DNA of 64,000 nt from an uncultured Lachnospiraceae bacterium. Its GTDB lineage: Bacteria; Bacillota; Clostridia; Lachnospirales; Lachnospiraceae. This document shows positions 53,053 to 56,349 of the stretch, piece after piece (positions within the stretch are counted from its first letter, which is position 1; each line of letters opens with the position of its first letter). The stretch is taken from assembly GCA_947053345.1 (NCBI GenBank), contig CAMRSM010000014.1, positions 28,908 to 92,907 of the forward strand, read 5' to 3'. The notes below the pieces were generated by a model. That model was not told where the DNA came from. It saw only the letters and a list, made by a program, of their open reading frames with translations, and ran no database searches. A program made the position numbers and the translations under genes.

Positions 53053-53081
53053 TTGACAAATCGGTTTACGTATTGTAAACT
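53053..53081 (+). promoter_or_regulatory. Promoter and BlaI-type operator of the M56-SBP operon
   Basis: TTGACA (53053-53058), 17 bp, TAAACT (53076-53081); palindrome GTTTAC-GTATT-GTAAAC at 53064-53080. Confidence 0.85.
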
Positions 53082-53117
53082 GATGACAGAAATCGATTTG
53101 ATATTTGGGAGGGCAAT

Positions 53118-53483
53118 ATGATAGAATACAGGCTGGCTGAGATCGAGATGCGTTTTGCCGAAATCATATGGAAAAATGAACCCTTGTCTTCCGGGGAATT
53201 GGTAAAGCGGTGCGGGGAAGAACTGAACTGGAAAAAGTCCACGACCTACACAATTCTGCGCCGTCTTTGTGAGCGGGGGCTGTTTCAAAATGAAGGGGGG
53301 AAGGTTGTCTCGCTCGTGTCGAGGGAGGAATTTTTTGCAATGCAGAGCGAGAAGTTTGTCGAGGATGCTTTCCAGGGGTCACTGCCCCAGTTTTTGCTGG
53401 CGTTTGTCCGCCGCAAAAAACTGTCAGAAAAAGAGGTGCAGGAACTGCTCGCGATCATCAATGAGGGGCGCGGGGAATCGTAA
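53118..53483 (+). CDS. BlaI/MecI family repressor (second system)
   Basis: MRFAEIIWKNEPLSSGELVKRCGEELNWKKSTTYTILRRLCERGLFQNEGGKVVSLVSREEF. Confidence 0.93.
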   Translation: MIEYRLAEIEMRFAEIIWKNEPLSSGELVKRCGEELNWKKSTTYTILRRLCERGLFQNEGGKVVSLVSREEFFAMQSEKFVEDAFQGSLPQFLLAFVRRKKLSEKEVQELLAIINEGRGES

Positions 53484-53504
53484 GACGGCCGGGGAGGTAT
53501 CGCT

Positions 53505-56138
53505 ATGGGAATTTACATGTTGCTCCCGGTCATTGCGGGAATGGGGGCGGTGGCAGGCCTTGCGGTTGCCGCTGTCCTGGTCGTACGGTGTTTTCTGAAA
53601 CGGGGTCCGAAGCTGTTTTGCTACCTGCTTTGGAGTGTCGTTTTGTTCCGGCTGCTCTGCCCGGTGTCCATACCATCCATGTTTTCCGCGCTGCGTCTGG
53701 TCGACCTGAAAGGAACTGCGCATATGAAGCCTGCGTCCGCGGCGCTGTTGGAATCGCTTCAGACGGGGGTTTCGGAGGGGAAGAGATGGGAAGGTATCCG
53801 GCAGAACGGAAATGCTCCTCTTAGTAAGGACGCGGGGGAAGGGACGCTGGCGGCAGATACGGATCTTTCGGGCTATGAGGATGGCAGGATGTTTGGCGGA
53901 GCCTATGATCTCTGGCTTGCGTGGGAGGGCAGGTTTAGCGTCGTCCGCCGTCCGGCAGCGGGGGAGACCGCTGCAACGGCGGATACTTCCCAGATTTTGC
54001 TTCCTGCCCCGCCCGCCCTGCTTTTGGAGAAGGGAGTTTCCGGGAAGGATGTCCTTTCGGAAGGCATGGTTGCGGCATGGGAGAGGCAGGGGCTTTTGGA
54101 AAATGCGATTTCCGTGGCAGGAGGTGCGGCGGGGCAGAATGTACCGGTGGGCGGGGATGCCCCTGTCCGGACAGGGTATGACAGCTTGCCCGCATGGCTT
54201 GTCATAGCCACATGGATATGGCTCTGCGGCATTGCCGTGATGTTGCTTTATAGCATATTCCGTATTCTGTGCCTGCGCAGGAAGCTGGTCGGCGCTGTGC
54301 GGCTTAGAGGAAATATTTACCAGTCCGATTATATTCAATCCCCATTTGTGTCCGGTGTGTTTGTGCCGAAGATTTATCTGCCGTCCGCCCTGTGCGGAAA
54401 AGAACAGGAGTATATTTTACTACATGAGCAGACGCATGTGAGAAGGGGCGACTATGTATTCCGGCTGCTGGCGTTTGCCGCGCTGATGCTCCACTGGTTC
54501 AACCCGCTTGTCTGGCTGGCGTTTTATCTCTCCGGCAAGGATATGGAGATGGCGTGCGACGAGGCGGTCATGAAAAAGATGAAGGAGGATATTCGGGCGG
54601 AATATTCCGTTTCCCTGTTAGAACTTGCGACCGGGCGGCATTTTGTTCTGGGAACCTACCTTGCCTTTGGGGAAGGGGATGTGAAGGGGCGGATCAAAAA
54701 TGTTATGCGCTATAAAAAACCGACCGTGTTCTGGATGGTCTTCGCGGCAATCTTCGTTTCGGGGACAGTCTGTGTGTTCGGCAGTGACCCGAAGACACCG
54801 GAAAAAGAAGGGCATACGGGGATTCTTAACCGGGTGCTGGTAGCCGGGACGGATTTTTATGATGCCGAAGACAGGGAAGGGCAGGAAAAATTCGGTGACG
54901 GCGCGGATAAGGAAGCGGGAAGCCGGACGGATAGCAGCGGAAATGACCGTTTTGGTGAGACTGAAGCACCGGGCGATGTCCTGACGGTCTATTCCCTTAC
55001 GGACAGTGCCGTTGCGCGGGAACTGGTCGCAGGCTTTGCATCGCGTTATCCGGACATTGAAGTTTGCCATGAGACCGGGAAGGAAGGGAGTTCGGTTCCG
55101 GAGCAGATTGATGCGCTGACAGTGAGGCTGCTTGCGGGAACGGGACCGGATGTGCTGCTTCTGGATGGGCTTCCGGCGCAGTCTTATCAGGAAAACGGGC
55201 TCTTGACGGACATGTCCAAAACCCTGGAACCGCTGAAGGAGGAACTGCAGGAAAATATTCTTTCTGCTTATACGGAGGATGGGGGGACATTTATGTTACC
55301 GGCCCGCTATTTTGTTCCGGTTATCCTTATACAGGAGCAGGGGGCGCGGCAGCTGGAATCCCTGCGCAGTCTTGTAGAGTATTCGTCGCCTCTGGAAGAG
55401 GGAAGAAAAATTGATCTGGACGGTTATTCCTGGGCGGACTTGCTGGAATTGGCGTATTATAATTATGCACCGGAATTTATCCTTCCGGACGGAAGCATGG
55501 ATGAAGAGGAAATTGCAAATTTCGTCTTGTACACGAAATGGCTGGGTGACGGCGCGTCGGTTGAAGGTGGGGAAGCGGCGCACCGGTATTTTGCGGAAGA
55601 GCTGGATGTGACGGAACTTGCGGAAAAGGATGCGGGGATTCTGCTTATGCCGTTTCGCGGGATGGATGATCTGTACACATATTCTGCCGAAGTTAAAAAT
55701 ATGGTATCGCAGGGCAGGAGAATGCTGCAGGTAGGAGGGAAATTCTTCCCGGTAGGGCTGGTTGGCATCAATGCTTGGTCAACGAACAAGGAGTTGGCGG
55801 GTTTGTTCGTGCAGACCGTATTTTCGGGGGAAATGCAGGCCGAATATAAAGGTTCCGGTTTTTCTGTCCATTCGGAAGTCTTCGAAGAAAATCTTGCAGA
55901 CTGGGCAAAGGCTTTGAGGACGGACACTCAGGGCGAAGTCTGGTGCGGGGAGGAAGGTGGAAGCAAGACTGTGGATGTGCTGGCGGAACAGATGGGGAGA
56001 GCGCTTCGCTCGGTTCGCAAGGGGCAGAATGTGGATGCCGCCGTTTTGCAGATCTTGACCGAGGAAGCGATAGGATATTTCAATGGGGAGGTTCTTTTGA
56101 AGGACTGTGTCGCGGCGATTGTGGAGCGGCTCTGGTAA
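53505..56138 (+). CDS. M56 (BlaR1-like) metallopeptidase fused to a C-terminal extracellular solute-binding-protein-like domain
   Basis: YILLHEQTHVRRGDYVFRLLAFAALMLHWFNPLVWLAFYLSGKDMEMACDEAVM; after a TM helix, LTVYSLTDSAVARELVAGFASRYPDIEVCHETG...LLAGTGPDVLLLDGLPAQSYQENGLLTDMS, matching the downstream lipoproteins. Confidence 0.9.
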   Translation: MGIYMLLPVIAGMGAVAGLAVAAVLVVRCFLKRGPKLFCYLLWSVVLFRLLCPVSIPSMFSALRLVDLKGTAHMKPASAALLESLQTGVSEGKRWEGIRQNGNAPLSKDAGEGTLAADTDLSGYEDGRMFGGAYDLWLAWEGRFSVVRRPAAGETAATADTSQILLPAPPALLLEKGVSGKDVLSEGMVAAWERQGLLENAISVAGGAAGQNVPVGGDAPVRTGYDSLPAWLVIATWIWLCGIAVMLLYSIFRILCLRRKLVGAVRLRGNIYQSDYIQSPFVSGVFVPKIYLPSALCGKEQEYILLHEQTHVRRGDYVFRLLAFAALMLHWFNPLVWLAFYLSGKDMEMACDEAVMKKMKEDIRAEYSVSLLELATGRHFVLGTYLAFGEGDVKGRIKNVMRYKKPTVFWMVFAAIFVSGTVCVFGSDPKTPEKEGHTGILNRVLVAGTDFYDAEDREGQEKFGDGADKEAGSRTDSSGNDRFGETEAPGDVLTVYSLTDSAVARELVAGFASRYPDIEVCHETGKEGSSVPEQIDALTVRLLAGTGPDVLLLDGLPAQSYQENGLLTDMSKTLEPLKEELQENILSAYTEDGGTFMLPARYFVPVILIQEQGARQLESLRSLVEYSSPLEEGRKIDLDGYSWADLLELAYYNYAPEFILPDGSMDEEEIANFVLYTKWLGDGASVEGGEAAHRYFAEELDVTELAEKDAGILLMPFRGMDDLYTYSAEVKNMVSQGRRMLQVGGKFFPVGLVGINAWSTNKELAGLFVQTVFSGEMQAEYKGSGFSVHSEVFEENLADWAKALRTDTQGEVWCGEEGGSKTVDVLAEQMGRALRSVRKGQNVDAAVLQILTEEAIGYFNGEVLLKDCVAAIVERLW

Positions 56139-56173
56139 GCAGGGATTCCCGGTTAATAATATAAAAGCGGCAG

Positions 56174-56241
56174 AATATGCCCTTTCTAGGTGGACAAGCA
56201 CAGATAAAAGTCTGTCACCCGGAAAGGGGCATATTTTTTTT
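56174..56241 (+). terminator. Terminator with extended, structured loop
   Basis: AATATGCCCTTTC ... GAAAGGGGCATATT-TTTTTT. Confidence 0.8.
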
Positions 56242-56294
56242 ATGGCTGTTTTTACGGAAACCACCAACTCCTTCAAAAAAAGACAAATATCCCC

Positions 56295-56349
56295 TTGACA
56301 AGATGGTTTACATGTTGTAAACTAAAAGGGAAGTTTACAACATGTAAAC
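56295..56349 (+). promoter_or_regulatory. Promoter and double BlaI-type operator of lipoprotein operon
   Basis: TTGACA (56295-56300), 17 bp, TAAACT (56318-56323). GTTTACATGTTGTAAAC (56306-56322) and its exact reverse complement GTTTACAACATGTAAAC (56333-56349). Confidence 0.88.

What the first reader, a model, noticed from the sequence alone, without database searches (positions are those of the whole stretch)
53064..56349. Shared GTTTAC-N5-GTAAAC operator links the BlaI-M56 operon to the lipoprotein operon
Seen: GTTTACGTATTGTAAAC (53064-53080) lies in the spacer/-10 of a TTGACA-17-TAAACT promoter before blaI. GTTTACATGTTGTAAAC (56306-56322) sits in exactly the same position before lipoprotein 1, in another TTGACA-17-TAAACT promoter. 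A second box (56333-56349) is the exact reverse complement of the first, 27 bp centre to centre. Inference: one repressor controls both units, so the lipoproteins are the regulon of the M56-SBP sensor.
Basis: seen in the sequence. Interest (0 to 1): 0.8.

Follow-up and report, generated by a model that had tools for sequence, protein, structure and literature searches.

The report
Shared BlaI operator for sensor and lipoproteins
A gut-type bacterium carries one rare DNA switch in front of two neighbouring gene clusters, so a single penicillinase-type repressor very probably turns on a membrane sensor together with a set of lipoproteins that look like the sensor's own outer half.

Summary
GTTTACN5GTAAAC occurs at 53064-53080, 56306-56322 and 56333-56349. 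These are the only three exact copies in the 4.13 Mb genome, where about 0.1-0.5 are expected. In both promoters the first box starts 11 bp after the start of TTGACA. The box lies before blaI or the lipoprotein operon in related genomes, and before blaI-M56 pairs in other genera of the family. It tracks the BlaI recognition helix: LRR proteins have GTTTAC, while LKR/LKK proteins with such a box have GTCTAC. The same geometry (GTCTAT-N5-ATAGAC, two boxes per promoter) has been shown experimentally for a Clostridium thermocellum BlaI. An intrinsic terminator separates the two units, so the shared operator is their link. A contig junction and synteny extend the target operon to two ABC permeases, a fourth lipoprotein and probably more. 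The sensor is a BlaR1-like M56 protease whose outer domain is a solute-binding domain homologous to the lipoproteins it would control. This parallels BlaR1, whose sensor resembles beta-lactamase. It is a new variant of the BlaI/BlaR1 kind; ligand and proteolysis are inferred.

The parts
52929..52973 (+). intrinsic terminator of the upstream ilvC gene
   Evidence: 19-pair stem followed by TTTT
53053..53081 (+). blaI promoter: TTGACA (53053-53058), 17-bp spacer, TAAACT (53076-53081)
53064..53080 (.). operator box A, GTTTACGTATTGTAAAC, in the spacer and -10 of the blaI promoter
   Evidence: box at the same place before the blaI orthologue (86%) of same-genus genome G001
53118..53483 (+). blaI, 121 aa, Penicillinase_R winged-helix repressor; recognition helix WKKSTTYTILRRLC
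   Evidence: Pfam PF03965 E=2.4e-23; MecI 1sd6/1okr by sequence
53505..56138 (+). M56-SBP sensor, 877 aa: four predicted TM helices, M56 metalloprotease (HEQTH 307-311, E348), C-terminal solute-binding domain (about 490-877)
   Evidence: Pfam PF05569 E=7.4e-48 and PF01547 E=0.00096, the latter below Pfam's cut-off; zinc motif invariant in 12 relatives; hydropathy
56174..56243 (+). intrinsic terminator closing the blaI-M56 unit
   Evidence: inverted repeat 56174-56196/56213-56235 followed by a run of T, fold -34 kcal/mol
56295..56323 (+). promoter of the lipoprotein operon: TTGACA (56295-56300), 17-bp spacer, TAAACT (56318-56323)
56306..56322 (.). operator box B1, GTTTACATGTTGTAAAC, at the same place in the promoter as box A
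   Evidence: conserved in G004 and, with one mismatch, G005
56333..56349 (.). operator box B2, GTTTACAACATGTAAAC, 27 bp from B1, over the expected start of transcription
   Evidence: second box also in G004 and G005
56413..58791 (+). lipoprotein 1, 792 aa: lipobox, beta-rich (propeller-like) N-terminal half, solute-binding C-terminal half
   Evidence: Pfam PF01547; AlphaFold2 model pLDDT 78.8; Foldseek best match CbpC sugar-binding protein 7x0o
58911..61256 (+). lipoprotein 2, same architecture
61417..63792 (+). lipoprotein 3, same architecture
63789..64000 (+). two copies of a ~105-bp tandem repeat at the contig end; contig C48 begins inside the same repeat and continues with a permease gene
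   Evidence: shared repeat and 19-bp end overlap

Best explanation
The boxes are the operators of the BlaI encoded at 53118. A BlaI dimer on box A or B1 sits between -35 and -10 and keeps RNA polymerase off. A second dimer on B2 covers the start site of the lipoprotein operon, so that operon is held down more tightly than blaI itself. The M56-SBP protein is a BlaR1-like receptor. Its extracellular solute-binding domain detects a ligand, the signal activates the cytoplasmic zinc protease, BlaI is cut near Ala95-Phe96 (the place aligned with Asn101-Phe102 of MecI), and both units are derepressed. The induced operon encodes lipoproteins that carry the same solute-binding domain as the sensor, followed on the next contig by two MalF/MalG-type permeases, a fourth lipoprotein, and probably an adaptor-like protein and a MATE transporter. 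The system therefore senses a solute with a copy of the protein it then makes in quantity. Steps shown by sequence: boxes, promoter geometry, exclusiveness in the genome, conservation, covariation with the repressor, domain homology. Steps inferred: binding, ligand, proteolysis, direction of response.
For: Three exact boxes in 4.13 Mb, all in these two promoters, against 0.08-0.46 expected. The cassette TTGACAN5GTTTACN5GTAAACT occurs 8 times in 397 family genomes, with 0 in the reversed control; all 8 places lie before a BlaI gene or before this lipoprotein operon. Paired boxes: 5 of 397 genomes, each before blaI or this operon, 0 controls. Same-genus orthologues: G001 blaI (86%) with an exact box, G004 with boxes at both promoters, G005 with two boxes before the lipoprotein. 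Covariation: 38 distinct BlaI, exact box in 8 of 14 with LRR in the recognition helix and 0 of 24 others (Fisher p = 6e-5, not corrected for kinship); in LKR/LKK proteins with a box it reads GTCTAC. Nine BlaI-type repressor genes in this genome score above the Pfam cut-off and none of the other eight has the box. Experimental precedent: C. thermocellum BlaI_0696 binds inverted GTCTAT repeats five nucleotides apart, two per promoter, regulon of three promoters (PMC8457756). Sensor and lipoprotein 1 are 31% identical over 404 residues. Synteny in G004 and the shared repeat join C48 to the operon.
Against: No binding or expression data. The blaI promoter has one box, whereas two per promoter were reported as required in C. 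thermocellum; G004 blaI also has only one, with one mismatch and in the downstream position. Covariation counts come from related proteins. The solute-binding domain of the sensor scores below Pfam's cut-off on its own, although it aligns well with the lipoproteins. The AlphaFold2 model of the sensor is poor in the M56 part, so protease and signalling rest on motifs. The ligand is unknown.
Confidence: 0.78

Rival explanations
1. The boxes are sites of another transcription factor, and BlaI is only one of its targets.
For: No binding data; a palindrome with a 5-bp gap could suit other winged-helix regulators (inference).
Against: The box recurs before blaI genes of several genera with different neighbours, and its third base changes with the BlaI recognition helix. 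A Clostridium BlaI has an experimentally shown site of the same geometry.
Confidence: 0.07
2. BlaI controls both units, but the M56-SBP protein does not sense a nutrient solute; it responds to envelope stress or to the lipoproteins themselves, which share its outer domain.
For: In G005 a paired operator lies before a secreted SH3-domain protein. Sensor domain and lipoproteins are paralogous, so competition for one ligand is possible. BlaR1 paradigms are linked to the cell wall.
Against: The operon with sugar-type ABC permeases and the sugar-binding-protein fold suggest solute capture.
Confidence: 0.25
3. The 19-bp inverted repeat before lipoprotein 1 acts as an RNA hairpin (attenuator or stability element).
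For: Perfect 19-bp arms with an 8-nt loop.
Against: The first arm overlaps the -10, so it lies upstream of the expected transcript start; blaI has one arm only; in most other promoters the arms are not reverse complements beyond the box palindrome; no Rfam match.
Confidence: 0.03
4. The similarity arose by chance or by recent copying of a promoter, without regulatory meaning.
For: Both promoters have the same -35/-10 geometry.
Against: Expected number below 0.5 per genome; similarity outside box and hexamers is low; kept in related genomes at 47-62% protein identity.
Confidence: 0.02

Closest known systems
BlaI/MecI - BlaR1/MecR1 of Staphylococcus aureus and Bacillus licheniformis
   Same: Winged-helix repressor next to an M56 membrane protease with an extracellular C-terminal sensor domain; separate target transcription unit with a shared operator; sensor domain homologous to a regulated protein (BlaR1 sensor related to class D beta-lactamases, PMC9834060).
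   Different: Sensor domain is a solute-binding protein domain, not a penicillin-binding domain; the loop between TM2 and TM3 is about 170 residues; operator half-sites are one base pair further apart than in TACANNTGTA; targets are lipoproteins and ABC permeases.
BlaI_0696 of Clostridium thermocellum (DAP-seq and EMSA, PMC8457756)
   Same: Inverted hexamers five nucleotides apart, two boxes per promoter, autoregulation, very small regulon.
   Different: Half-site GTCTAT instead of GTTTAC; targets described as a beta-lactam response; no SBP sensor reported.
CopY/TcrY copper repressors (PMC7253601)
   Same: Same repressor superfamily, two operators per promoter most often 26 bases apart.
   Different: Operator RNYKACANNYGTMRNY; senses copper through C-terminal CxC motifs, without a membrane protease.

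Membership tests
BlaI/MecI (Penicillinase_R) repressors | Winged-helix domain of PF03965 | tested here: met
   83.1 bits against a cut-off of 22.6; aligns to MecI over residues 4-116
BlaI/MecI (Penicillinase_R) repressors | Palindromic operator overlapping its own promoter | tested here: met
   Box A in the spacer/-10 of the blaI promoter; conserved and covarying with the helix
BlaI/MecI (Penicillinase_R) repressors | DNA binding, and release by proteolysis between Asn101 and Phe102 | not testable with these tools
   Aligned residues are Ala95-Phe96; binding and cleavage need an experiment
BlaR1/MecR1 beta-lactam sensors | M56 metalloprotease with HExxH and downstream Glu, four TM helices | tested here: met
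   PF05569 E=7.4e-48; HEQTH and E348 invariant in 12 sequences; hydrophobic segments at 9-27, 38-56, 230-248, 408-426 besides one inside the M56 domain
BlaR1/MecR1 beta-lactam sensors | C-terminal penicillin-binding (class D beta-lactamase-like) sensor domain | tested here: not met
   C-terminal part matches solute-binding proteins; NCBIfam blaR1_generic far below cut-off, 83.5 of 400. Not filed as BlaR1.
CopY/TcrY | NCBIfam TIGR02698 above cut-off, C-terminal CxC metal motif | tested here: not met
   37.2 bits against 121.95; no CxC at the C-terminus
ABC solute-binding lipoproteins (sugar type) | Lipobox and SBP fold with permease partners | tested here: met
   for lipoprotein 1; permeases on contig C48

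The most novel reading that the evidence does not exclude
An M56 protease receptor has exchanged the beta-lactam sensor for a solute-binding domain related to the very lipoproteins it induces, so that BlaI-type proteolytic derepression serves nutrient or glycan capture instead of antibiotic resistance, with sensor and product competing for one ligand.
Probability: 0.5. Interest if true: 0.68.

Novelty: new variant of a known kind. Interest (0 to 1): 0.52.

Why it matters
BlaI-M56 pairs are numerous in this bacterial family and are usually named after beta-lactam regulation, although their outer domains differ. This locus gives a sensor, a repressor, an operator and a target with a clear prediction for each. 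It also suggests a simple rule (recognition helix LRR reads GTTTAC, LKR reads GTCTAC) for assigning operators, and so targets, to other pairs. It repeats the BlaR1 principle that the sensor domain is a relative of the protein it regulates, but with solute-binding proteins.

Tried and rejected
RNA hairpin reading of the inverted repeat: rejected because the first arm overlaps the -10. Larger regulon in this genome from one-mismatch sites: rejected, all four are single and inside long open frames. Lipoprotein clusters elsewhere in G001 and G004: no boxes at up to 2 mismatches in the loci fetched, so not targets on this evidence; the promoter of the G001 orthologue of lipoprotein 1 lies at a contig end and could not be read. 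Structure prediction of the sensor gave pLDDT 46 and was not used. The genome-contig scan with the sensor gave one relative only, from an uncultured Roseburia. Literature searches for M56 proteins with SBP sensor domains found nothing relevant.

Full report
The boxes. The sequence holds three perfect GTTTACN5GTAAAC palindromes at 53064-53080, 56306-56322 and 56333-56349. The first two lie in the spacer and -10 of two TTGACA-17-TAAACT promoters. The third follows 27 bp after the second, over the expected start of transcription. In the whole 4.13 Mb genome no other exact copy exists, while 0.08 (Markov model) to 0.46 (62% AT) are expected. The other four places with one mismatch are single boxes inside long open frames, and matches at up to one mismatch are no more numerous than the reversed-pattern control (7 against 10). 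The motif is thus specific to this locus.

The two units. ilvC ends in a terminator (52929-52973) before blaI. The blaI-M56 pair ends in a strong terminator (56174-56243). The lipoprotein operon therefore has its own promoter, and the shared operator is the only visible link between sensor and lipoproteins. The operon does not stop at the window's end. The window closes at the end of contig C14 inside a ~105-bp tandem repeat, and contig C48 begins inside the same repeat with a MalF/UgpA-like permease, a fourth lipoprotein and a MalG/UgpE-like permease, then an adaptor-like protein and a MATE transporter. The same gene order lies on one contig in same-genus genome G004: blaI 82.5%, M56-SBP 47%, two lipoproteins, permease 82%, an SBP-type gene, permease 83%, adaptor-like protein, MATE.

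Conservation. In G001 (blaI 86%) the box is exact and in the same place. In G004 the lipoprotein promoter has an exact box plus a second with one mismatch, and blaI has one box, in the downstream position, with one mismatch. In G005 the lipoprotein promoter has two boxes, and a second pair stands before a secreted SH3-domain protein. In an uncultured Roseburia (L052) blaI has two boxes. In 13 of 14 promoters examined the first box starts exactly 11 bp after the start of the -35 hexamer; the centre distance of two boxes varies from 25 to 33.

Who reads the box. A search of 397 family genomes for TTGACAN5GTTTACN5GTAAACT gave 8 places in 7 genomes and none for the reversed control. All lie before a BlaI-M56 gene pair or before this lipoprotein operon. 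Paired boxes gave the same picture. Among 38 distinct BlaI proteins the exact box is found before 8 of 14 with LRR in the recognition helix and 0 of 24 others (Fisher p = 6e-5, kinship not corrected). LKR/LKK proteins with a box of this geometry carry GTCTAC-N5-GTAGAC. Other BlaI paralogues of the own genome have different palindromes in like promoters, for example TCCTACAGGTGTAGGA and TTCTAACGCGTTAGAG. In Clostridium thermocellum BlaI_0696 was shown by DAP-seq and EMSA to bind GTCTAT repeats five nucleotides apart, two per promoter, with a regulon of three promoters (PMC8457756). The geometry is therefore known for a clostridial BlaI; it is one base pair wider than the classical TACANNTGTA (PMC7253601).

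The sensor. The 877-aa protein has four predicted TM helices, an M56 domain with HEQTH and Glu348 invariant in 12 relatives, and a C-terminal domain from about residue 490 that is 31% identical over 404 residues to lipoprotein 1. Only about a dozen full-length relatives stood out in a search of 5.8 billion proteins, so the fusion appears rare. Lipoprotein 1 has a beta-rich N-terminal half and an SBP half (model pLDDT 78.8), closest by fold to sugar-binding proteins such as CbpC. BlaI has Ala95-Phe96 where MecI has Asn101-Phe102 (cleavage site in PMC9834060).

Reading. The best explanation is a BlaR1-like circuit in which ligand binding to the SBP domain activates the protease, BlaI is cleaved, and both units are derepressed. 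One box at blaI against two at the target would give leaky sensor and tight target expression (inference). The signal could instead be envelope stress or the lipoproteins themselves; the SH3-domain target in G005 leaves that open. Binding, ligand and cleavage are untested.

Verdict. The kind of system is known; the solute-binding sensor, which is a relative of its targets, and the LRR/LKR operator code make it a worthwhile new variant.

Noticed in passing
63789-64000 and G000:C48:1-71 (L036): A ~105-bp tandem repeat with internal inverted repeats lies between lipoprotein 3 and the permease gene; it breaks the assembly and may be a structured intercistronic element.
   Followed up: partly
window about 36100-36620 (L011): A second BlaI gene in the window (C14:65191) has its own pair of inverted boxes, TTCGATTGTAATAGAA and TTCTATTGCAATCGAA, in the same type of promoter.
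   Followed up: partly
L110:5372-5421 and 5704-7803: In same-genus genome G005 a paired GTTTAC operator precedes a secreted SH3_3-repeat protein gene downstream of gatB, a possible cell-wall member of the regulon.
   Followed up: partly
L082, L089, L092, L093: BlaI proteins with LKR or LKK in the recognition helix have GTCTAC-N5-GTAGAC-type boxes, suggesting a readable operator code.
   Followed up: yes
G000:C17:41097-42813 (L039): Another M56 gene in this genome lies in a 1496-aa open frame, so its protein may carry a large extra domain.
   Followed up: no
L120-L131: G001 and G004 carry further clusters of the same lipoproteins without this operator; their regulation is unknown.
   Followed up: no
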